A stretch of 64,000 bases of DNA from an uncultured cyanobacterium (GTDB lineage: Bacteria > Cyanobacteriota > Cyanobacteriia > CACIAM-69d), in NCBI GenBank assembly GCA_937883785.1, contig CALGDE010000132.1:1-64000 (forward strand), in the 5' to 3' direction. The position numbers and the translations under genes are program-made. Positions 31,353 through 49,364 of this stretch are shown in pieces. Below the pieces are notes generated by a model that worked only from the letters and a program-made list of their open reading frames with translations, was not told the origin of the DNA and ran no database searches. Position 1 is the stretch's first letter; every line of letters begins with the position of its first letter.

Positions 31353-32798
31353 ATGGTCTTCTCGTCCGCGTCATTTTTATTCTATTTTCTGCCCCTAGTG
31401 CTGGTGGCCTATTTCGTCAGCCCTAAATCAGTCAAAAACGCCACTTTGTTAATTGCTAGCCTGTTTTTCTACCTATGGGGTGGCGGGCGGTTTACAGGAA
31501 TGTTGCTGATCTCCATCACAGTAAATTGGCTAATGGGGCTGTGGGTTGACCGGTGTGGATTTCAGGGGAAAGACACCAAGCTTCGCCACCGAGGGTCCCT
31601 GAAAAAAGTCGCTTTGGTGTCAGCCTGGGTCTTTAATATTGGCGTTTTAGGCTACTACAAATACGCCAACTTCTTGACAGAACAAGTCAACGCGATTTCC
31701 CCCTCAATTTTTTCCGACTGGGACGAAATCATCTTGCCCATTGGAATTTCCTTCTTCACCTTTCAAGCTCTAAGTTATGTCATTGACGTAGCCCAAGGTA
31801 TTACACCAGTGCAAAAACGTTGGGATAAATTTGCCCTTTATGTGGCGTTTTTTCCCCAGTTAATTGCCGGCCCCATTGTGCGATATCGAGACATTGCCAA
31901 TCAAATTGAGCGGCGATCGCACAGTTGGGCAAAGGTGTCCCAGGGCATGACACGGTTCGCTTACGGATTAGTAAAAAAGGTGGTTATTGCTGACTCCGTT
32001 GCCCGAGTTGCCGAAGCCACTTTTGACCCAGGCGCCCCCCTATCTTTTTCCGCTGCCTGGTTGGGACTCGCCGCCTATATGGTGCAGTTGTACTTTGATT
32101 TTTCGGGCTACAGCGATATGGCGATCGGCTTGGGGCGACTCTTCGGCTTTCGATTTCCTGAAAATTTCTGTCGTCCCTATTCTGCCATCAGTATTAGCGA
32201 CTTCTGGCGACGCTGGCATATGACCCTGTCCCAGTGGATTCGAGATTATATCTATATTCCCCTAGGGGGCTCCCGCCAGGGAAACGGTGCCACTTATCGA
32301 AATTTGGCGATCGCATTTCTATTTACCGGTATTTGGCACGGGGCGAACTGGACCTTTATTTTGTGGGGAATTTATCACGGCGGCTGGATTATTGTGGAGC
32401 GCTGGAGTGGTTGGAAACGGAGAAATCTTTCTCTGACTCAAACCGTATTTTGCCGAGCAATAACCTTGTTAATTGTGATGATGGGCTGGGTGATTTTTAG
32501 ATCGGAAACCGTTGGGGATGCTGTGAATTACTATCAGCATTTAATTAATAGTGGCGCGAATAATGCCTGGTCTATGGACTTACAAGATGCGTGGAATCGT
32601 CAGGCTCAATTATGTTTAATGATCGGCGGGGTGATCGCCCTTCTGCCTGGAGAGATTAATCTTGGACGCTACCTAGACTGGTCAACGTCTTCTTTCGCAA
32701 CCGGCGTAAAATTTGCCATAGCAGGAGTGGGATTTCCCCTGGCCCTTCTGCTAACGATTTCCAATGAATTCTCTGCATTTTTATACTTTCAATTTTAG
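31353..32798 (+). CDS. MBOAT O-acyltransferase, AlgI-like
   Basis: A 481-residue polytopic membrane protein of the membrane-bound O-acyltransferase family. SISDFWRRWHMTLSQWIRDYIY contains the conserved His289, and FTGIWHGANWTF the catalytic His329; LPIGISFFTFQALSYVID and PQLIAGPIVRY are further AlgI signatures. The family passes acetyl groups across the membrane for polysaccharide acetylation. The next two genes (gaps 41 and 44 bp) encode an AlgX/AlgJ-like acetyltransferase and a large membrane protein, so the three form an exopolysaccharide-modification unit. The polymer is unknown. Confidence 0.92.
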   Translation: MVFSSASFLFYFLPLVLVAYFVSPKSVKNATLLIASLFFYLWGGGRFTGMLLISITVNWLMGLWVDRCGFQGKDTKLRHRGSLKKVALVSAWVFNIGVLGYYKYANFLTEQVNAISPSIFSDWDEIILPIGISFFTFQALSYVIDVAQGITPVQKRWDKFALYVAFFPQLIAGPIVRYRDIANQIERRSHSWAKVSQGMTRFAYGLVKKVVIADSVARVAEATFDPGAPLSFSAAWLGLAAYMVQLYFDFSGYSDMAIGLGRLFGFRFPENFCRPYSAISISDFWRRWHMTLSQWIRDYIYIPLGGSRQGNGATYRNLAIAFLFTGIWHGANWTFILWGIYHGGWIIVERWSGWKRRNLSLTQTVFCRAITLLIVMMGWVIFRSETVGDAVNYYQHLINSGANNAWSMDLQDAWNRQAQLCLMIGGVIALLPGEINLGRYLDWSTSSFATGVKFAIAGVGFPLALLLTISNEFSAFLYFQF

Positions 32799-32839
32799 AC
32801 TTTTAATACCTGTAAATTTCCAGATTAAAGCGTCCCAAG

Positions 32840-34528
32840 ATGACCACAAGTCGCAGAAAATCCAGCTCGGTTTTATTGCCTAAAATTAGTGCCAAGGCGA
32901 TCGCCTTGGCACCGGGATTACTGTGTCTGTGTTTGCTGAGCTATCCTCTTCTGAAGGTGGTCAGCTCCTCGTTTGATGCTAATTACCTTGAAGTTGTTGA
33001 AAAACGAGAACCAAAACGTTTTCCCAAGCGAACTTATTTTAGTGCCTGGCTAAGAAAAAGAAACTATCGGCAGCTTTCTGAGTTTATTGATGACAGGCTG
33101 CCTTTTCGTGGCTTGGCTATTCAAACAAAGCAAGTATTAGCTGAAAATATCTTGGGAGAGTCCCGTTTTACCGCAGTGGATATGGGCAAAAACGGATGGC
33201 TCTATTACCGATTGAGCTATGGGCTTGAGGAAACAGGAGACGGCAATTTAATTGATGGAGAAAGAGTTGAATACGCCTTAAATAATCTGCAATATTTTTT
33301 GCAGTGGCAAACAGCGCAAAGGCGTAAAGTTAGGGTGATGGCGGTGCCCAATAAGCACACCATTTATCCTGAATATTTATCAAAGCAGGCAAGGGATGAT
33401 CTAGAAAAGAGTCAGCCCGGTCGCGAAACATTGTACGAGAAGTTTGGTGAATCACAGGATAAAAGGCTGATTGACTTATGGGACGCGCACGAATCGGCGA
33501 AAAAGAAGTCGCCAGAAAAGCTCCTTTATTTCCCAGAAGATACCCATCACTCTAGCTGGGGAAGTATTGTCTTAATGAGAAGCCTTGTTCAATCCCTAAG
33601 CTCTGATTTATGGAACCCTAAGGACATCAAAGTTCATGGTGGATACGGTAATTGGGGGCTAGATTTGAAGCATATTTTAGGGTACGCCGCTTTCGAGTCT
33701 GAGCAAGAGCTTCCCCTTTTCTACCTTGAAAGGTCTGGGGTGGAAACGGAAAGGATATTAGTGGGAGATAGGGAATTTTCCTCTTTGGCTGAGGCTGCGG
33801 ACAAAGGATTGTTGGGCGATCGCGACAGTATTCTAAGCTTTTTGCAAAATTCCGATGGTGTACCACTAATTCCAGGTCGGACTTTAGTTATAAGAGACTC
33901 TTTCTTGGAGGTTAGCCAACAGAAAAGCCTATCCCAATATTTCCAGTCCGTTGACTATATCCACGCCCAATCAAAGTCTTTATCTCAAGAGTTTATCCAT
34001 CAGTCGGCGAAGAATTACGACACAATCATAATCGCAGTAGTGGAAAGGAATTTCCTCTCATTTCTAGAAACATTGCCTCGATATTTAAATGATGGAAATA
34101 TTCAGGGCGAAAAGCCGATTTTTCAACAGATTAATGGAAACTTTGAATTGATCGGCAAACTAGGCGAGAAAACAAAAACCAAAATTGACAATGGTTTTCT
34201 AGAAGTAACTTCCCGAAAAGCTAAGCCTTTTATTACGCTTAAAATCCCTCAGCTAAACGCAGAAAAATCCTATAAATTGAATCTCTCTGTTGAAAGTCCA
34301 AGATTAGATCGGGTGGATTTATACTACCAATCAGATTATCAGCTGGAGCTTCTTGGAGAGAAATTTTCCCCTGCCAGAAGGATTTCTCTGGGGTTAAAGC
34401 CGGGCGAAAATAATATTTCCTTTTTTCTACAAAGTGCAGGACTGCGATCGCCATGGAAACTTCAGTTTGAAGGTGGGGAAGGCACTTATAAGATAGAATC
34501 CATCGAAATTTTTGAGCTTCCCGACTAG
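32840..34528 (+). CDS. AlgX/AlgJ-like SGNH acetyltransferase
   Basis: A 562-residue protein with one N-terminal membrane anchor or signal (about residues 17-45) and an exported SGNH-type domain. KNGWLYYRL (near 117-125) is the usual entry motif. The catalytic pair is in YFPEDTHHSSWG (Asp234, His236), and the Ser in VIRDSF (Ser354) completes the triad seen in AlgX/AlgJ. The last 120 residues resemble a beta-sandwich, possibly carbohydrate-binding. It would transfer acetyl groups supplied by the MBOAT protein 41 bp upstream to a polysaccharide in the periplasm. Base composition is somewhat more AT-rich than the surroundings. Confidence 0.82.
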   Translation: MTTSRRKSSSVLLPKISAKAIALAPGLLCLCLLSYPLLKVVSSSFDANYLEVVEKREPKRFPKRTYFSAWLRKRNYRQLSEFIDDRLPFRGLAIQTKQVLAENILGESRFTAVDMGKNGWLYYRLSYGLEETGDGNLIDGERVEYALNNLQYFLQWQTAQRRKVRVMAVPNKHTIYPEYLSKQARDDLEKSQPGRETLYEKFGESQDKRLIDLWDAHESAKKKSPEKLLYFPEDTHHSSWGSIVLMRSLVQSLSSDLWNPKDIKVHGGYGNWGLDLKHILGYAAFESEQELPLFYLERSGVETERILVGDREFSSLAEAADKGLLGDRDSILSFLQNSDGVPLIPGRTLVIRDSFLEVSQQKSLSQYFQSVDYIHAQSKSLSQEFIHQSAKNYDTIIIAVVERNFLSFLETLPRYLNDGNIQGEKPIFQQINGNFELIGKLGEKTKTKIDNGFLEVTSRKAKPFITLKIPQLNAEKSYKLNLSVESPRLDRVDLYYQSDYQLELLGEKFSPARRISLGLKPGENNISFFLQSAGLRSPWKLQFEGGEGTYKIESIEIFELPD

Positions 34529-34572
34529 ATAAAATATCGGCACAATTACATTTTTTAGGCTTACAAGAAACC

Positions 34573-36366
34573 ATGGTTGATCACCGAAAGCAAAGGTTTT
34601 TAGCATGGTTTTCTAAAATCTTCCTCCCCACCAATAGCTGCTGGTATAGCCAGAAAAATATTCCCTACTTAGCGGCATCGTTGCTGATTGTTCTGTGGCA
34701 GGCATTGCAGGCTTATAGTTACGGAACGTCGAGAACCTACATGGTTCAAGATGATGCTCGGCAACATGTGTTTTGGATGCAGCGATGGTTAGATACCGAC
34801 CTTTTTTCCAATGACTTGATCGCTGACTACTTTCAAAGTGTGGCGCCTTGGGGATATCAGGGCGTATATCGATTTTTTACCTGGTTTAATGTGGAACCTT
34901 TGCAGACCGCAAAGATTTTGCCTGGATTAATTGCCGCACTGTCTACGTTTTTATTTTTTCGCCTAGTTCTCAAGTTAATTCCCGTTCCTTTTTTGGGATT
35001 CCTAGGATGCCTATTTCTAAATCAGGCGCTGTGGTTAGAGGACGGAATCATTTCAGGTACCCCAAGGGCTTTTGCCTATCCGTGGTTAATTGGATTTCTT
35101 GATGGTTTCTTAACTGAATCGGCTATCTCGATGTGGATATTTATGGTGCTCCAGGCGCTATTTTATCCTCAGGCTTTACTGGTTGCGATCGCCACCCTAA
35201 CCCTCTCCTTCGGTAAGCAATTGAGGAATCGAAGGAAGCTTTTCAAAGCATTTGTCCCTTGGTGCTTTGGAATTTTGGTTTTAGGGATACTTCTTGTGGT
35301 CAGAAGTGTAGGAAATAGTGCTGACTTTAGCCCAATTCTCCCTGTGGAAATGGCGAAGGAACTGCCTGAATTAGGTTATTTCAATGGAGAATATGGGCGC
35401 TCATTTTTCTTCCATCAAAATCCGTTTATTTTTTGGTTGTTTTCCCCTCGCAGCGGCTTTCTAGCTTTGGGACTGTTAAACCCTCTACTACTGAGCAGTC
35501 TGGCCTTGCCTTGGCTATTGCGATCGCCCCAAAAATTCGATATTTCCCACCGCCTAAATCCCAAGCTTCAGCGCATTGGATACTTTATTGGCGCATCATT
35601 TTTGATGTTTTTTACTGCCCATTTATTGCTGTTCCAGCTACATCTTCCAGCTCGCTATACCTACTATTCATTTCGACTGAGTTTGATTTTGTTGGGGGCG
35701 ATCGCCATTGGATTATTGCTAGAAAAATGGTGGCGTCTAATTCAAAATTGGAAAGCAAGGAAGAAACGACTTTGGGTTTTAAGCAGCGCTTTTGCTTTGT
35801 TGATGTTAATTATTAGCTTCGGCTGGCTTCCCTTATCTAAAGGACTTACCGTTTATTCCCATCTACAAATAAAAGGGAGAATAGGAGATATATACGAATT
35901 TCTACGGGAACAACCTAAGGATATTGTGGTGGCATCGATCGCAAAAGAAGCGGACAATATTCCCACTTTTGCCCAGCGTTCTGTCTTGGCAGCGTCAGAA
36001 TATGCCATTCCGTATCACTGGGGTTACTATCAGCAATTGCGACAGCGTGTTGAAGACACAATAGTTGCTCAGTACACGGATGATCTGGAGACTCTTGCTG
36101 AGTTTATAGATAAATATGACGTGGATTACTGGCTAGTGGAAACTTGGAAACTGTCCTTAAAGGAATTTCAAAAAAGTCCCCGCCTACAGCAGTTTGAACC
36201 GACTAGTAGTGCCGTTATGGGTAACCTAGAGAATGGAAAACAGCCGATTTTTCCGATTTTCTATGAGGGCTGCACTGTTGTTGAGCAAAAAGATCAGCGC
36301 TTACTGGATGCCCGATGTATTCGTGAAACGATCGCCGCTCTTTTAGAAAACCAGCAGGGGAATTAG
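34573..36366 (+). CDS. Large polytopic membrane protein, GT-C-like
   Basis: A 597-residue protein with about ten hydrophobic helices and a soluble C-terminal part (from about residue 430). The early loop YMVQDDARQHVFWMQRW contains acidic residues placed like the catalytic loop of GT-C glycosyltransferases (compare the DxD/EDD loops of lipid-linked sugar transferases), and STPRAFAYPWLIG-like character (GTPRAFAYPWLIG) follows. I cannot name the family. It follows the AlgI/AlgX-like pair by 44 bp, so a role in assembling or exporting the acetylated polymer is reasonable inference. Confidence 0.7.
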   Translation: MVDHRKQRFLAWFSKIFLPTNSCWYSQKNIPYLAASLLIVLWQALQAYSYGTSRTYMVQDDARQHVFWMQRWLDTDLFSNDLIADYFQSVAPWGYQGVYRFFTWFNVEPLQTAKILPGLIAALSTFLFFRLVLKLIPVPFLGFLGCLFLNQALWLEDGIISGTPRAFAYPWLIGFLDGFLTESAISMWIFMVLQALFYPQALLVAIATLTLSFGKQLRNRRKLFKAFVPWCFGILVLGILLVVRSVGNSADFSPILPVEMAKELPELGYFNGEYGRSFFFHQNPFIFWLFSPRSGFLALGLLNPLLLSSLALPWLLRSPQKFDISHRLNPKLQRIGYFIGASFLMFFTAHLLLFQLHLPARYTYYSFRLSLILLGAIAIGLLLEKWWRLIQNWKARKKRLWVLSSAFALLMLIISFGWLPLSKGLTVYSHLQIKGRIGDIYEFLREQPKDIVVASIAKEADNIPTFAQRSVLAASEYAIPYHWGYYQQLRQRVEDTIVAQYTDDLETLAEFIDKYDVDYWLVETWKLSLKEFQKSPRLQQFEPTSSAVMGNLENGKQPIFPIFYEGCTVVEQKDQRLLDARCIRETIAALLENQQGN

Positions 36367-42495: not shown

Positions 42496-43386
42496 ATGAC
42501 CGCAGGACAAGCTTATTTAAATCAGGATCCCAAGGAGGATCAGCGGCCGTTTTTTGCCTATGCCGTCGGCGTTTTAATGGCAATTATTTATGTCCCTTTG
42601 TTGTGGCATTGGGCTCAAGGTTGGATTTTTAAAAATATCAGTCTTGAGCACGAGTACTTTAGCTACGCTTTTATTGGCATCCCCTACGCCGCTTACGCTG
42701 CCTGGCAAAATCGAAAGCTTTGGGACAGTATTGCTGATCAAATTCACTTCATTGGCTTTTTCTTATTAAGCCTAGGGTGTGTCTTATACCTGAGCGGTGT
42801 TTCTGACCTCGTTAATTTGTCGCTGCCCATTGTGGTGGCTGGTATGGTGGGCTGCTGGAAAGGGCTTCCGGGGCTAAGGCTGCATGTGGCTCCGCTGATG
42901 TTTTTGCTTCTGGCGACGCCAAATGAGCTACCTTATTTAATCTCTCCCTACACGTTAGGGTTACAGCGCTTTATCGCTAACGTTGCGGGCTTTGTGCTGA
43001 ACCAGTTTGATCTGAATGTTACGGTTCAGGGTATTTATTTATTCGTCAACGAACGAACGGTGGAGGTGGCTCCCCATTGTGCCGGCTTGAAAATGTTGAT
43101 CACGAGTCTGTATGTGGCGCTAATGCTGCTGCATTTGCGGAGGAAGCTGCGATCGCCATTTCATTTCGGATTGTTGATGAGCGGCGCTGTACTGATCAGT
43201 GTTGCCATGAACATTTTGCGTAACACTTTACTGACCCTATTCCATGGCATGTATTGGGACGGGTTGTTCCACTTTTTACATGAAGGCGTCGGTGGAGATA
43301 TTTATTCGGCGCTGATGCTGGGAGCCATAATTTGGTGGATGCAAGGCGTTGACCGCATTGTGCCTCTGTTGCGAGAACGCTATTAA
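42496..43386 (+). CDS. Cyanoexosortase B
   Basis: A 296-residue membrane transpeptidase-like protein with about eight helices. The exosortase triad is intact: Cys195 in VEVAPHCAGLKM, Arg242 in NILRNTLLT and His262 in LHEGVGGDIYSA. The enzyme recognises PEP-CTERM tails and is thought to cleave and attach proteins for surface display linked to exopolysaccharide. The next gene encodes the dedicated cyanoexosortase B-associated protein and the one after it a polysaccharide exporter, the usual neighbourhood. A probable substrate lies at 59930. A repeat element separates it from its partner gene. Confidence 0.92.
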   Translation: MTAGQAYLNQDPKEDQRPFFAYAVGVLMAIIYVPLLWHWAQGWIFKNISLEHEYFSYAFIGIPYAAYAAWQNRKLWDSIADQIHFIGFFLLSLGCVLYLSGVSDLVNLSLPIVVAGMVGCWKGLPGLRLHVAPLMFLLLATPNELPYLISPYTLGLQRFIANVAGFVLNQFDLNVTVQGIYLFVNERTVEVAPHCAGLKMLITSLYVALMLLHLRRKLRSPFHFGLLMSGAVLISVAMNILRNTLLTLFHGMYWDGLFHFLHEGVGGDIYSALMLGAIIWWMQGVDRIVPLLRERY

Positions 43387-43548
43387 GGCGTACGTTTGTG
43401 TCGATAGTTTCCAAAAGGTTTTGGCTGCGAAATGGCGCGGTAGCTTTGTATGGCGAATAAGTGCGCGGCTTACTGGCTATTGGGGCATCTCTTGCACGAG
43501 TAAAATCTATTCCTACAAACCTGCACAGGTGAAAAACGTTAGGGGTTT

Positions 43549-43692
43549 TGGGGCGTGCTATCAATCAAGCACCAGAAGCCTCACTTGATGAGGAGTACGC
43601 GCCTTTTTGAAGCAAAAGTCAAGGCAAAAAGTGCTAGGGGGCTGGACCCCTAACAGCTAAAGGCTTTGCCCCTTAAATGATGACAGCCTTAG
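43549..43692 (+). repeat. Dispersed MITE-like element, copy B
   Basis: GGGGCGTGCTATCAATCAAGCACCAGAAGCCTCA at the left and AAATGATGACAGCCTTAG at the right match copies D and E. It is about 12 bp longer because of an internal GTCAAGGCAAAAA duplication-like stretch. The terminal stem is weakened here. It lies between the exosortase gene and its partner gene. Confidence 0.8.
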
Positions 43693-43795
43693 TCACAGGC
43701 GATTCGATTTTGGTCCCGATAGGTTTCGGTCCTAGTGCCCAGAAGCCTACCGCCCCTAAGTAATCCGTCCTACCTAATTTTAAAAACACAACTCC

Positions 43796-44668
43796 ATGAA
43801 TAAGCTGTGGCAATGGATTCGCGGGTATCTAGCCCCAAATACGCCTTTTAAACTGACGGCGCTGATTTTATTGCTGGTGGTGGCGATCGCGGGAGCTGCC
43901 CCAGGTTATCTGAAGGGTAATTGGCGATGGTCCTGGGTCGGTCCTGTCGCCAATTTATCGGACCTTCGGGAAATTCGAAAAGAAGGCATTGAGATTCCCA
44001 ACTGGGAAACTATGGAGCAGGGAGAGCGACTTATTGGCTCACGAACCTGGTCTTCCCAGAGAATTCGCCCAGTTTCCGAAAGTAGGGACATTGAAGATAA
44101 GGAACCGGACGAAGTGGTAGTTGGAGCCTCCGACGGAGATTCTGAACAAGCACCTGAGCAAGACTCTGAAGCTGTAGACAGTGGAGCTGCGCAGGCTGCT
44201 GAAGAGCGGGACCAAGATCAATCAAATGATCGGGTGATGCAGGTGATGCTGCTGCCAACTAAATCTGATGCTGACCAGCCCCAGGTGGAATGGAGCGACT
44301 GGGAGGGGGTTGCCCAAATTACGACGGATTCTGAGCGCTTTGTGGATTTGCAGGCAAAGTCTGGAGATCAGCGAGCCACCTTTACCGTGCGCTTACTGCG
44401 GGGATGGACCGAGAACAACACAACTTTGGTTATGGCCCAGTGGTACGCCTGGCCCGGCGGCGGCAGCCCGAAGGCTGGCGACTGGTTTTGGGCGGATCGC
44501 GGCAGTCAAATTCGCCGCCACCGCTTGCCTTGGGTGGCGGTGAATATTGTGACTGAAACCAAGCGTCCTTTAGATGATTTGGAAGATTATCAGGATTTAC
44601 TAGAGGACACTGCGATTGATGTACAAACAGGATTAATTCGGGGACCGCTCAAACCTCAAGACACTTAG
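43796..44668 (+). CDS. Cyanoexosortase B system-associated protein
   Basis: A 290-residue protein with one N-terminal membrane helix (about residues 18-36) and a large exported part. After the helix come GNWRWSWVGPVANLSDLREIRKEGI-type sequence, then an acidic, Glu/Asp/Gln-rich linker (about 95-145), then a domain with RATFTVRLLRGW and MAQWYAWPGGGSPKAGDWFWADR. This arrangement matches the partner family encoded beside cyanoexosortase B. Its biochemical role is not established; it may present or hold substrates. Repeat elements lie on both sides of the gene. Confidence 0.85.
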   Translation: MNKLWQWIRGYLAPNTPFKLTALILLLVVAIAGAAPGYLKGNWRWSWVGPVANLSDLREIRKEGIEIPNWETMEQGERLIGSRTWSSQRIRPVSESRDIEDKEPDEVVVGASDGDSEQAPEQDSEAVDSGAAQAAEERDQDQSNDRVMQVMLLPTKSDADQPQVEWSDWEGVAQITTDSERFVDLQAKSGDQRATFTVRLLRGWTENNTTLVMAQWYAWPGGGSPKAGDWFWADRGSQIRRHRLPWVAVNIVTETKRPLDDLEDYQDLLEDTAIDVQTGLIRGPLKPQDT

Positions 44669-44747
44669 CCTGTTCGTGTGGGGATCTGCTGGGTTATTTG
44701 TTAATTGTTTTTTCGAGTTTCTTGCCCTCTTGCTTCTGGCAGGAAAA

Positions 44748-44880
44748 CTAAGGTCTGTGACCAATCTAATTCCTGAGTCAAAAGCTGTAAGGGGTTCAGC
44801 TCCCAGCATTTTTTACTTTGAAAGGGTGTGTACTCCCCATTGCACAAGGCTTTAAGGGTTTAATTGATGACACGCCCTAA
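44748..44880 (-). repeat. Dispersed MITE-like element, copy C (inverted)
   Basis: Read on the minus strand it begins TTAGGGCGTGTCATCAATTAA and runs through GGGGAGTACACACCCTTTC and GGGAGCTGAACCCCTTACAGC to CCTTAG. The stem AGGGTGTGT (44823-44831) pairs with ACACGCCCT (44870-44878) with one G-U pair. It is opposite in orientation to copies B and D, which flank it. Confidence 0.82.
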
Positions 44881-44948
44881 TAATGTGTCAATGGGCCTCT
44901 TTCCTCGCTTAGCCGTTTTTCTTCAATCGTTTTTCATCCTAAATTGAC

Positions 44949-46649
44949 GTGTCAATGAGTCAGCCACTGGTTAATTTTGCGAAGTTTGCACCGCGTAAAT
45001 TTTGGCGATCGCGATTCCTGACGTTGCAATTAGCCACTTTGGCAGCCGTGCTTGGCGCATTCAGCGGCACTTCAGCAGGTGTTGCGTCCGCCAGAATTGG
45101 CTCGTTGTCAGAACAAGAGGCGTCAGAATCCCAAGCAATCAACCCCTCTGCTCAGCTGAGAGAAGAACCCCAGCAGGGCTCGGAGAAAGACTCGGAGCCG
45201 ATTTTTCCTGATATTCCTCGTCAACCGGCAGACGATTCCCAGTTTCCCCAGGCTGAGCCCTTGGAGGAAGAAGCTCCATCTTTGGACACGGCTCCTGAGA
45301 ATTCCCCCGAAGCGTCCGACAATACAGTTCCTCCTCCTGACAGCTCGTCAGAGCGATCGCCCCAACCGCCACCGGCCGCTAAACAGCCCAAGCCTGACTC
45401 TCCTTCCCCTGAAGTTGTCGGTGAAGAAGGCGATCGCGATTTAGAAGAAACCCCTGACGCTGCCCCGAATACCACCACTCCTAGGCGCTTACCCCCTCTA
45501 TTGCCAAGGCGGGACAGCCCCACTGCTCGACCGGACCCACTTTTTCCGCTGGATCCTGGAGCAGAGGTTCCCGGTGATCGTTTTGATCGCGACCCCAATG
45601 AACTGGGCGGAGACGACCCTCTGCCGAATGTGCCGCCGGCCTTATTGGAACCAGTAGACCCTTGGCGAGCCTATCGACTATCGCCTCTGGATAGCGTCGT
45701 GGTGCAAGTTTTTGGCTATCCCGACTTATCTTTCAACACCAACGTGGACCAGGGGGGACGAATTTTGGTGCCCCTGGTGGGCTTTTTAAAGGTGGAAGGA
45801 CTCACCCTGGAGGAGCTTCAGGGGGCCCTAGAGAGCGCCTACAACGAATACGTGATTGACCCGGAGGTGTTGGTTACCTTGGGCAGTCAGGTGAACCCCG
45901 ATATCGTTGTGTCTGGCGAAGTAGTACGCCCTGGCTTTTACCGCGTCGGCTCCTTTGAAACGGTGGTGCAGGCGCTGATTTCAGCGGGTGGCGTGAAAGA
46001 TAGCGCCGACTTGCGGGCGATCGCCCTGCGTCGTCGGTTACCCGATGGCACCTTGCTGGAGCAGGAGCTGAACCTATTGGAATTATTAGCGGAAGGTTTG
46101 CCGGAGCCACGATTTTTCTTACAGGATGGCGACGTGGTGTTTGTGCCTCGGCGAGAGGTGGTCAACGACCCCACGTACAACTTTGCCTTGGCCACATTAA
46201 ATAACCTGGGACAGCCCACCATTCGAGTGCGTTTGTTGGCTTACGTGGGTGAAGGCGGCTTGCGCACCGTTACCTTACCCACAGGCAGCTCTTTTATTGA
46301 CGTGCTAGAAGGGCTACCCATCTCCCAAATCAACTTGCGTAAGGTGGCCCTAATTCGCTTTGAGGCGGAGCAGGGAACGGTGGTTACCCAGGAACTGGAC
46401 GGAAAAGCTGCCATCCTTGGCGACCTAACTCAAAATCCCCAGCTTCGGGACAACGACGTGATTGTGGTTAATCGCAACTTGATCACCAAACTTACGGTGT
46501 TCTTTAACCGATTTACTCAACCCTTCAGGGACGTTCTGGGCTTCCTGCTATTTTTCCGCGAGTTAGATAACGCTGCTGAAGAGCTATTTGGACCGGAGGG
46601 AACCTTTAACGGCGGGTCTGAAAATGACAACAACAATAATGATAATTAG
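44949..46649 (+). CDS. Polysaccharide export protein (Wza/OPX type, SLBB domains)
   Basis: A 566-residue exported protein. After a signal-like helix (about residues 24-48) comes a long low-complexity Pro/Glu/Ser-rich region (50-230), then a polysaccharide-export domain (YRLSPLDSVVVQVFGYPDLSF to DPEVLVTL, about 238-318), a first SLBB (VVSGEVVRPGFYRVGSFETVVQAL) and a second SLBB-like region (about 425-490). The C-terminus is Asn/Asp-rich. The expected role is exopolysaccharide passage across the outer membrane, fitting its exosortase neighbours. GTG at 44949 or ATG at 44955 start. Its TAG stop is the first triplet of repeat copy D. Confidence 0.87.
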   Translation: MSMSQPLVNFAKFAPRKFWRSRFLTLQLATLAAVLGAFSGTSAGVASARIGSLSEQEASESQAINPSAQLREEPQQGSEKDSEPIFPDIPRQPADDSQFPQAEPLEEEAPSLDTAPENSPEASDNTVPPPDSSSERSPQPPPAAKQPKPDSPSPEVVGEEGDRDLEETPDAAPNTTTPRRLPPLLPRRDSPTARPDPLFPLDPGAEVPGDRFDRDPNELGGDDPLPNVPPALLEPVDPWRAYRLSPLDSVVVQVFGYPDLSFNTNVDQGGRILVPLVGFLKVEGLTLEELQGALESAYNEYVIDPEVLVTLGSQVNPDIVVSGEVVRPGFYRVGSFETVVQALISAGGVKDSADLRAIALRRRLPDGTLLEQELNLLELLAEGLPEPRFFLQDGDVVFVPRREVVNDPTYNFALATLNNLGQPTIRVRLLAYVGEGGLRTVTLPTGSSFIDVLEGLPISQINLRKVALIRFEAEQGTVVTQELDGKAAILGDLTQNPQLRDNDVIVVNRNLITKLTVFFNRFTQPFRDVLGFLLFFRELDNAAEELFGPEGTFNGGSENDNNNNDN

Positions 46650-48410: not shown

Positions 48411-49364
48411 TTAGCTGTGGGTTTCCACTGGATCTGAACTTTGAGGCTCTGTATTGGATAGTCCACTGGACGCAGCGATCGCCACCACCCCCCCTGCCCC
48501 ATCCTGGCTCCAGCGCTCCGTTACCCTCTCTTTTTCCATCATGGGATTTTGAAGTTCCCACACTTTCAACAGAATCAAATACTCATAAAACGCCTGCAAA
48601 ACACACCAGGTAAAACCTGCTCTGCCGTCTAAACATCCCCCTAGCCCGAAATACATGTAGAGAAACCGGACAAAGGGACGAAATGGCACCCGCAACGATA
48701 AATCTTTTAGGGCATGCCGGCGAATAATTTCAGTTTCACCGAAGAACAAATCTCGCCAAGCAATACCTCCGTTCTCAAGCTGTTGAATGGTTTCTTTTGC
48801 TTCGTTGGTGGAGTAAGTGTTGTGCTTCTCAACCCACCTAAAGAATCCTTTCCCAGAGGTATAGTGCGGGTAAGTTTCTGTTAGATATCCAGCCTTGCCG
48901 GCAATTTCTTCACGCTCCGTATGGCCGTAATCACTGAACCAGGCTGAACCTTTCTTAATTAGCCGCATTTGGTAGCGGGGAAACTGGGTGCTGTGCTTAA
49001 TCCAGTGATTCATAAACATCACCCGTTCCGCCGCGAAGTAAGCGACCTTATCGGTATTTTTAATAACTTCAGAGCACTCCTTAAATAACTCAGGAGTCAT
49101 CAATTCGTCGGCTTCTAAAATATAAACCCAAGGATACTTCGTGGGCACTTCTTCCAACATCCAAGTGCGCTGTTTTCCGTGGCTTTCAAACTTATGCTGA
49201 ATAACGCGGACAGGGTTATTTTCGGCAATTCCCTTGGCGATTTCTACGGTGCGATCGCCACTAAAAGAATCCACAATAATCACGTCATCCGATAGCAGAG
49301 CAGATTCAATGCAGTCTGCAATATCTCTTTCTTCGTTGTAAGTCAGAATATAAATTGAAAACAT
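48411..49364 (-). CDS. Glycosyltransferase family 2
   Basis: A 317-residue GT-A glycosyltransferase. SIYILTYNEERDIADCIES and VIIVDSFSGDRTVEIAK form the nucleotide-sugar fold, and YILEADELMTPEL takes the place of the DxD motif (LDADE in most homologues, here with Glu first). The type resembles WaaE/KdtX-like core or O-antigen sugar transferases. The C-terminal 40 residues are polar and unrelated. No other envelope-sugar gene is adjacent; the sugar and acceptor are unknown. Confidence 0.87.
   Translation of the reverse strand: MFSIYILTYNEERDIADCIESALLSDDVIIVDSFSGDRTVEIAKGIAENNPVRVIQHKFESHGKQRTWMLEEVPTKYPWVYILEADELMTPELFKECSEVIKNTDKVAYFAAERVMFMNHWIKHSTQFPRYQMRLIKKGSAWFSDYGHTEREEIAGKAGYLTETYPHYTSGKGFFRWVEKHNTYSTNEAKETIQQLENGGIAWRDLFFGETEIIRRHALKDLSLRVPFRPFVRFLYMYFGLGGCLDGRAGFTWCVLQAFYEYLILLKVWELQNPMMEKERVTERWSQDGAGGVVAIAASSGLSNTEPQSSDPVETHS

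What the first reader, a model, noticed from the sequence alone, without database searches (positions are those of the whole stretch)
31353..36366. Compact exopolysaccharide O-acetylation cassette with an unassigned membrane protein
An AlgI-like MBOAT, an AlgX/AlgJ-like protein with intact Asp-His-Ser and a 597-residue GT-C-like protein lie within 45 bp of one another. The third member's acidic early loop suggests a lipid-linked sugar transferase; no polymerase is nearby, so the polymer is unknown.
Basis: partly seen in the sequence, partly recalled or inferred. Interest (0 to 1): 0.5.

Follow-up and report, generated by a model that had tools for sequence, protein, structure and literature searches.

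The report
Cyanobacterial acetylation pair plus sugar transferase
Three neighbouring cyanobacterial genes encode a known two-part machine that carries acetyl groups out of the cell onto a surface sugar polymer, plus a probable membrane sugar-transferase from an unnamed cyanobacterial family that was found beside this machine in only one lineage.

Summary
An AlgI-like MBOAT (31353-32798), an AlgX/AlgJ-like SGNH protein (32840-34528) and a 597-residue polytopic protein (34573-36366) lie head to tail. The first two form an MBOAT-SGNH acetyl relay: the MBOAT ends in the acyl-shuttle motif FXYXXF (FLYFQF), and the SGNH triad D234/H236/S354 is invariant in 6 of 6 aligned rows. The third matches no Pfam or NCBIfam family and no PDB sequence. 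Its predicted fold is GT-C: 25 of 26 Foldseek matches at E<=0.001 name GT-C enzymes or their complexes. Early-loop Asp61 is invariant in 89 of 89 rows. The GT-C guess is therefore supported at the level of fold. The 'cassette' is lineage-limited: the trio recurs in one related cyanobacterium (third protein 77% identical), but 78 of 80 loci of the third family show no MBOAT or AlgX relative nearby, and 0 of 39 other MBOAT/AlgX loci show the third family. 'No polymerase nearby' needs a qualifier: the only Poly_export (Wza-type) gene found in the genome lies 8.6 kb downstream, behind a cyanoexosortase B. Most likely: periplasmic O-acetylation of an envelope polysaccharide, plus sugar addition by the GT-C protein, possibly to the same polymer.

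The parts
31353..32798 (+). MBOAT acyltransferase, AlgI/PatA/DltB-like, 481 aa; catalytic His candidate H329 (WHG), C-terminal acyl-shuttle motif FLYFQF with Tyr478
   Evidence: PF03062 1.1e-36; DltB 6bug 1.2e-29; motif at the very C-terminus
32840..34528 (+). AlgX/AlgJ/PatB1-like SGNH O-acetyltransferase, 562 aa; N-terminal membrane anchor about residues 16-45; triad D234, H236, S354; beta-rich C-terminal part about 428-560, possibly carbohydrate-binding (inferred)
   Evidence: PF16822 1.7e-9; profile: PatB1 5v8d 5.5e-15, AlgJ 4o8v 6.9e-14; hydropathy; weak model, mean pLDDT 37
34573..36366 (+). Polytopic protein of 597 aa with predicted GT-C fold; first-loop motif QDDARQHVFWM (D61 and R63 invariant); invariant cysteines C567 and C582 near the C-terminus
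   Evidence: (no named family or PDB sequence match)
32799..32839 (+). 41-base gap between first and second gene (42 in L053)
34529..34572 (+). 44-base gap between second and third gene (64 in L053)
42496..43386 (+). Cyanoexosortase B, context only, 6.1 kb downstream of the trio
   Evidence: TIGR04156, 366.7 bits, cut-off 300
44949..46649 (+). Poly_export/SLBB (Wza/OPX-type) protein, the only Poly_export hit found in the genome, context only, 8.6 kb downstream

Best explanation
This is an MBOAT-SGNH O-acetylation pair with a GT-C glycosyltransferase gene behind it, working on an envelope polysaccharide in the periplasm. The MBOAT takes acetyl from cytoplasmic acetyl-CoA and loads it, with H329, onto Tyr478 of its own C-terminal FLYFQF tail. 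The tail hands the acetyl to Ser354 of the membrane-anchored SGNH protein, which puts it on a sugar hydroxyl of the polymer. The third protein transfers a sugar from a polyprenyl-phosphate carrier, with D61 of the first extracytoplasmic loop as candidate catalytic or metal-binding residue. In this lineage the sugar probably goes to the same polymer, so that the cluster both glycosylates and acetylates it. Shown: gene order, motifs, predicted fold, conservation. Inferred: activities, donor, polymer, and that the third protein shares the target of the other two.
For: MBOAT and ALGX domains, with DltB, PatB1 and AlgJ as nearest solved relatives. FXYXXF at the exact C-terminus in 36 of 37 MBOAT ORFs (three places counted twice, one the window's own); of 1320 ORFs of the neighbourhood set 8 end this way and all 8 are the MBOATs of that set. 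The acetyl-Tyr relay is shown experimentally for PatA/PatB (PMC12148441: outline with abstract, section 4 and passages seen). Triad invariant in 6 of 6 rows. GT-C fold: 25 of 26 Foldseek matches at E<=0.001 name GT-C enzymes or OST complexes, the other (rank 1) being a chain of a secretory translocon, probably its STT3 subunit; VIA-align Z up to 20.1 with 482 residues aligned at 5.1 A. D61 in 89 of 89 rows. Other members of the family recur near a PMT_2-like GT-C gene (16 loci; 13 members adjacent on the same strand), a GT2 gene (14 loci) and an LPG_synthase_TM gene (6 loci). The trio is kept, with purifying selection, in a second species. The second and third genes have the two lowest G+C contents of 46 window ORFs.
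Against: Only 2 of 80 loci of the third family show an MBOAT or AlgX relative, and 0 of 39 other MBOAT/AlgX loci show the third family. G135, of a sister genus, has relatives of all three at separate places. Searching with the proteins, the second and third genes occur together in 3 of 386 genomes; with the looser ALGX family model, 12 of the 47 genomes with the third family also have an ALGX hit, several below its cut-off. A response-regulator-like group (named by eye) is as frequent near the third family as the PMT_2-like one (16 loci), though never adjacent on the same strand. Foldseek TM-scores are only about 0.4-0.5 and identities 9-14%. No polymerase and no polyprenyl-phosphate-sugar synthase was recognised in the cluster. 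No activity has been measured.
Confidence: 0.55

Rival explanations
1. The third gene is only a neighbour. It is one of five copies in this genome of a cyanobacterial GT-C family that glycosylates some other envelope glycan, and its place behind the acetylation pair is an accident of one lineage.
For: Five family copies in the genome; 78 of 80 family loci without an MBOAT or AlgX relative in the stretch read; closest orthologues L062, L064, L065 elsewhere; 44 of the 47 genomes with the family have no relative of the second gene by protein search, 35 of 47 no ALGX hit.
Against: Order and strand of the trio are kept in L053 at 84, 67 and 77% protein identity, with gaps of 42 and 64 bases; the second and third genes share unusual base composition.
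Confidence: 0.37
2. The acetylation target is peptidoglycan, as with PatA/PatB, and not an exopolysaccharide; the GT-C gene acts on a peptidoglycan-linked glycan.
For: The relay motif and triad are those shared with PatA/PatB; a paralogue of the third gene overlaps a murG-like gene (named by eye) by 4 bases in this genome (L068) and in Limnothrix (L059).
Against: The solved matches of the SGNH profile are PatB1 (secondary wall polysaccharide) and AlgJ (alginate); the murG link concerns a paralogue and 2 of 80 loci.
Confidence: 0.15
3. The third protein is an oligosaccharyl- or C-mannosyl-transferase that glycosylates proteins.
For: The best structural matches are OST/STT3 chains, with PglB and DPY19 among the rest.
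Against: A shared GT-C fold does not show the acceptor; AftA and ArnT, which act on glycans and lipids (recalled), score Z 18.6 and 15.3; identity is 8-14% in the 26 Foldseek and 50 VIA rows.
Confidence: 0.1

Closest known systems
MBOAT-SGNH acyltransferase pairs (PatA/PatB of peptidoglycan, PatA1/PatB1 of secondary wall polysaccharide, AlgI with AlgJ/AlgX of alginate, WssH/WssI of cellulose)
   Same: MBOAT with terminal FXYXXF and conserved His; adjacent SGNH protein with Asp-x-His and Ser; MBOAT-then-SGNH order as in G193 (L111) and G229 (L112)
   Different: Followed by a GT-C gene; Ser motif RDSF as in PatB1 (KDSF) and not GTSYS as in AlgJ; second AlgJ motif reads PEDTHH and not (R/K)TDTHW; no AlgF-like or synthase gene recognised beside it
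GT-C glycosyltransferases (STT3/PglB, ArnT, AftA, ALG9/ALG12, DPY19)
   Same: Predicted fold over most of the 597 residues and an acidic pair just after the first membrane helix
   Different: No PDB sequence match by single sequence or profile; own motif QDDARQHVFWM; no Pfam or NCBIfam family
Three-component (multi-component) transmembrane glycosylation systems (GtrA/GtrB/Gtr GT-C; Citrobacter GT136)
   Same: Some paralogue loci combine this GT-C family with GT2 and LPG_synthase_TM genes
   Different: At the window no adjacent GT2 or flippase gene; a GT2 gene at 48411-49364 is 12 kb away on the other strand

Membership tests
MBOAT-SGNH O-acyltransferase pair | MBOAT domain with conserved His | tested here: met
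   (PF03062 1.1e-36); WHG at 328-330
MBOAT-SGNH O-acyltransferase pair | C-terminal FXYXXF acyl-shuttle motif | tested here: met
   FLYFQF, last six residues; definition from PMC12148441
MBOAT-SGNH O-acyltransferase pair | Adjacent SGNH protein with Ser-His-Asp triad | tested here: met
   D234, H236, S354, 6 of 6 rows; profile matches PatB1 and AlgJ
MBOAT-SGNH O-acyltransferase pair | Acetyl transfer from MBOAT tyrosine to SGNH serine to a glycan | not testable with these tools
   Needs biochemistry
DltB | NCBIfam DltB equivalog cut-off | tested here: not met
   177.7 bits against a cut-off of 375
AlgJ (signature motifs) | Hydrophobic stretch then PxK, and (R/K)TDTHW | tested here: not met
   First motif present (VMAVPNK, 166-172); second reads PEDTHH, keeping D-x-H but not the rest (motif definitions)
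AlgX | SGNH domain followed by C-terminal carbohydrate-binding module | tested here: inconclusive
   ALGX Pfam domain met; C-terminal beta-rich region seen only in a model of mean pLDDT 37
Alginate biosynthesis system | AlgF and the alginate synthase/export genes | tested here: inconclusive
   AlgF no hit, but the control rang nowhere; an Alg8-like synthase among 23 Glyco_tranf_2_3 hits was not resolved; AlgE and AlgK not searched
GT-C glycosyltransferase superfamily | GT-C fold | tested here: met
   Predicted model pTM 0.81, mean pLDDT 77.8
GT-C glycosyltransferase superfamily | Acidic residue in the first extracytoplasmic loop | tested here: met
   D61 89 of 89, D60 82 of 89; it follows the first predicted membrane helix; not superposed on a solved active site, catalytic role not tested
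GT-C glycosyltransferase superfamily | Use of a polyprenyl-phosphate-sugar donor | not testable with these tools
   Needs biochemistry
Three-component Gtr-type system | GT2 donor synthase and flippase beside the GT-C gene | tested here: not met
   Not in the window trio or its immediate neighbours; GT2 and LPG_synthase_TM genes present at some paralogue loci

The most novel reading that the evidence does not exclude
The third gene belongs to an unnamed cyanobacterial GT-C family with several copies in some genomes (five here). In this lineage one copy has been recruited into an acetylation operon, so that a lipid-linked sugar branch and its O-acetylation are made as one coupled modification of a single envelope polymer.
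Probability: 0.4. Interest if true: 0.55.

Novelty: new variant of a known kind. Interest (0 to 1): 0.38.

Why it matters
The biosynthetic pathways of cyanobacterial extracellular polymers are called still largely unknown in the abstract of PMC4594306, and AlgI was not taken further in that phylum-wide survey because none was found in its model strain (start of abstract and passages seen). Here an acetylation pair is tied to the acyl-tyrosine relay by a testable six-residue tail, and an unannotated membrane family found in 47 of 386 genomes of the phylum is recognised as GT-C by predicted fold, which gives a set of unannotated cyanobacterial genes a concrete, testable function.

Tried and rejected
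Third gene as a constant part of MBOAT-SGNH cassettes: rejected. In one search I examined 47 loci; 8 showed no SGNH or MBOAT gene by my profile and were dropped; of the 39 left, 18 had an MBOAT and an SGNH gene within two genes of each other and 0 had the third family. I chose the loci from the listings and from earlier fetches; they are not a random sample.

A polytopic 595-aa neighbour of the AlgX relative in G135 (L060) looked like a second GT-C; Pfam shows an ABC transporter permease, so it was dropped.

The model of the second protein, made from two sequences, is poor (mean pLDDT 37), so no fold search was made with it. The AlgF search is uninformative because the control rang nowhere. 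Promoter-like and terminator-like sites were about as many as in shuffles (7 against 8.0, 7 against 6.6). The single-sequence PDB search of the second protein gave only three weak hits with E near 1.

Literature: 0 papers of the held library with at least 3 of cyanobacteria, MBOAT, AlgX, exopolysaccharide acetylation; 0 with GT-C, MBOAT, O-acetyltransferase and operon together; 0 with five GT-C/cyanobacteria terms. One search listed 8 papers with three of four related terms; of these I looked into PMC4594306 only. One search listed 20 of 23 papers on AlgX/AlgI/MBOAT terms; I looked into PMC12148441 and PMC4148444. One search listed 15 of 117 on GT-C; I looked into PMC11127046 and PMC8035078. 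One search listed 8 of 18 on acetyl groups in cyanobacterial polysaccharide; none read for that. Most subscription papers are not held, so this is no proof that the trio is unpublished.

Limits of the counts: of the 80 third-family loci one place was fetched twice (L058 and L153); some stretches end at a contig end; MBOAT and AlgX relatives were sought there with single-sequence phmmer at E<=1e-5, which can miss distant ones; one search scored at most three candidates per genome; two of the 91 family ORFs, short pieces in L145, were left out of the 89-row alignment, which holds 87 different sequences. Phyla other than the window's were not searched for the third family, except by the short-pattern scan, whose 7 loci are all cyanobacterial. 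The tree is a quick one with SH-aLRT support only. Names murG, LptF/G, TldD and response regulator rest on my reading of the sequence, not on a family search.
Full report
The window comes from a 4.84 Mb cyanobacterial genome in 167 contigs. One genome of the same family, G045, has a contig of 206,121 bases, the length of a Limnothrix sp. CACIAM 69d record that also carries the third family, so G045 is probably that strain; G033 is placed in the same genus as G045. The gene upstream is a ubiD homologue ending 143 bases before; downstream lie a PAP_fibrillin gene on the other strand and a TldD-like gene (named by eye).

First gene. It is an MBOAT (1.1e-36), nearest among solved structures to DltB (1.2e-29), but far below the DltB equivalog cut-off (177.7 against 375). 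It ends in FLYFQF. PMC12148441 shows for PatA that the tyrosine of a C-terminal FXYXXF motif is auto-acetylated and that a conserved His is needed, and that the partner PatB accepts acetyl from such a peptide (abstract, section 4 and passages seen). I tested the motif on 37 MBOAT ORFs from the phylum: 36 end exactly in FXYXXF; the one miss is cut by an in-frame stop. The 37 include the window's own gene and three places fetched twice. Of 1320 ORFs of the neighbourhood set, 8 end in this motif and all 8 are the MBOATs of that set, so the motif is not chance.

Second gene. It carries the ALGX domain (1.7e-9). An alignment with five relatives of 22-67% identity keeps D234, H236 and S354 in 6 of 6 rows. 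A profile of these finds B. cereus PatB1 (5.5e-15) and AlgJ (6.9e-14); the printed alignment puts the D-x-H and DSF motifs on those of PatB1. One of two AlgJ signature motifs is present, the other only in its D-x-H core. Hydropathy shows an N-terminal anchor at about residues 16-45. The C-terminal 130 residues come out as beta strands in a weak model; a carbohydrate-binding role is inference.

Third gene. No Pfam or NCBIfam family over its cut-off and no PDB sequence match. AlphaFold2 on nine sequences gives pTM 0.81 and mean pLDDT 77.8. Of 26 Foldseek matches at E<=0.001, 25 name GT-C enzymes or OST complexes (STT3, PglB, AglB, DPY19, AftA, ArnT, ALG9, ALG12); the other, rank 1, is a chain of a secretory translocon, probably its STT3 subunit. 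TM-scores are about 0.4-0.5. VIA-align gives Z 20.1 (482 residues, 5.1 A) for yeast OST chain 6ezn_F, and 18.6, 18.4 and 15.3 for AftA, PglB and ArnT; the tool's own yardstick is a best Z of 7-8 for models without a clear match and about 14 for mostly helical ones. Identity is 8-14%, so this is a shared fold only. In 89 family rows D61 and R63 never change, D60 is D in 82, and C567 and C582 never change. Asp61 lies just after the first membrane helix of the model, where GT-C enzymes carry catalytic acidic residues (recalled; not superposed here).

The family. It occurs in 47 of 386 genomes of the phylum and in five copies in this genome. I read up to about 9-10 kb on either side of the listed hits, less at contig ends. 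Of 80 loci (91 family ORFs, window included) two, the window and L053, show an MBOAT or AlgX relative in the stretch. Recurrent neighbours within 5 kb are a PMT_2-like GT-C group (16 loci; 13 members adjacent on the same strand), a response-regulator-like group (16 loci, none adjacent on the same strand; named by eye), a GT2 group (14 loci) and an LPG_synthase_TM group (6 loci). Pfam checks of single members: PMT_2 over the cut-off for L138 and just under it for L054; Glycos_transf_2 and LPG_synthase_TM clearly over theirs. A search with single queries gave 15, 11 and 7 loci within 9 kb for PMT_2-like, GT2 and LPG_synthase_TM. This recalls the GT-A plus flippase plus GT-C glycosylation systems described in PMC8035078 and PMC11127046 (passages seen). 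Two loci, one in this genome (L068) and one in Limnothrix (L059), have a murG-like gene overlapping the family gene by 4 bases.

Is it one cassette? For: the trio, in order and strand and with short gaps (42 and 64 bases), is kept in L053, an uncultured cyanobacterium, at 84, 67 and 77% identity, with the same downstream genes; dN/dS is about 0.09, 0.12 and 0.10 (dS 1.1-1.9, so rough); the second and third genes are the two lowest in G+C of 46 window ORFs of at least 150 aa (0.424 and 0.435 against a mean of 0.534). Against: the nearest orthologues of the third gene (L062 in G135, L064 in G033, L065 in G045; a 5-row group with 99% SH-aLRT) show no MBOAT or AlgX relative nearby. G135 has a 57% MBOAT relative, two AlgX relatives and the GT-C orthologue at separate places. 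G033 and G045 have no relative of the second gene. By protein search the second and third genes co-occur in 3 of 386 genomes (G000, G135, G229); with the looser ALGX model 12 of the 47 genomes with the third family have some ALGX hit, of 79 genomes with one. Of 39 other loci with MBOAT or SGNH genes, 18 are pairs and none has the third family. I conclude that the pair is the older unit and that the link with the third gene is confined, so far, to one lineage, kept in two species, and of unproven meaning.

Polymer. The Wzy_C hits lie on other contigs and the 23 Glyco_tranf_2_3 hits also lie on other contigs, so no polymerase was found beside the trio. But the only Poly_export hit in the genome lies in the gene at 44949-46649, behind a cyanoexosortase B and its associated protein. 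Six genes on both strands stand between the trio and the exosortase, so no operon is claimed; it is a lead to the exported polymer.

Verdict. The acetylation reading is strongly supported, the GT-C reading well supported at the level of fold, and the one-cassette reading open.

Noticed in passing
window 42496-46649: Cyanoexosortase B, its system-associated protein and a Poly_export/SLBB protein in a row; the Poly_export hit is the only one found in the genome.
   Followed up: partly
L068 1686-4567 (G000:C22) and L059 8808-11845: A paralogue of the third gene overlaps a murG-like gene (named by eye) by 4 bases in this genome and in Limnothrix sp. CACIAM 69d, suggesting translational coupling.
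   Followed up: partly
L054, L056, L059, L063, L069, L075, L078, L079, L113, L117, L120, L128, L137, L138, L160, L162: Members of the third gene's family stand near a second, different GT-C-like family (PMT_2-like); 13 members are adjacent on the same strand.
   Followed up: partly
L072 9117-10655 (G000:C115) and L171/L184 (G000:C16): A second MBOAT of the genome, ending FIYFNF, has no relative of the second gene in the stretch read; a second, weak ALGX hit lies on another contig.
   Followed up: partly
L062 7639-10779 and L066 662-4126: Family members lie close to LptF/G-like genes (named by eye) in two genomes, convergent in one and about 480 bases apart on the same strand in the other.
   Followed up: no
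window 32840-36366: The second and third genes are the two lowest in G+C of 46 ORFs in the window, and are A+T-rich in L053 too.
   Followed up: partly
L073, L079, L117, L135, L166: An unassigned protein recurs on the same strand near the family; the member tested (598 aa, L135) has no Pfam match.
   Followed up: no
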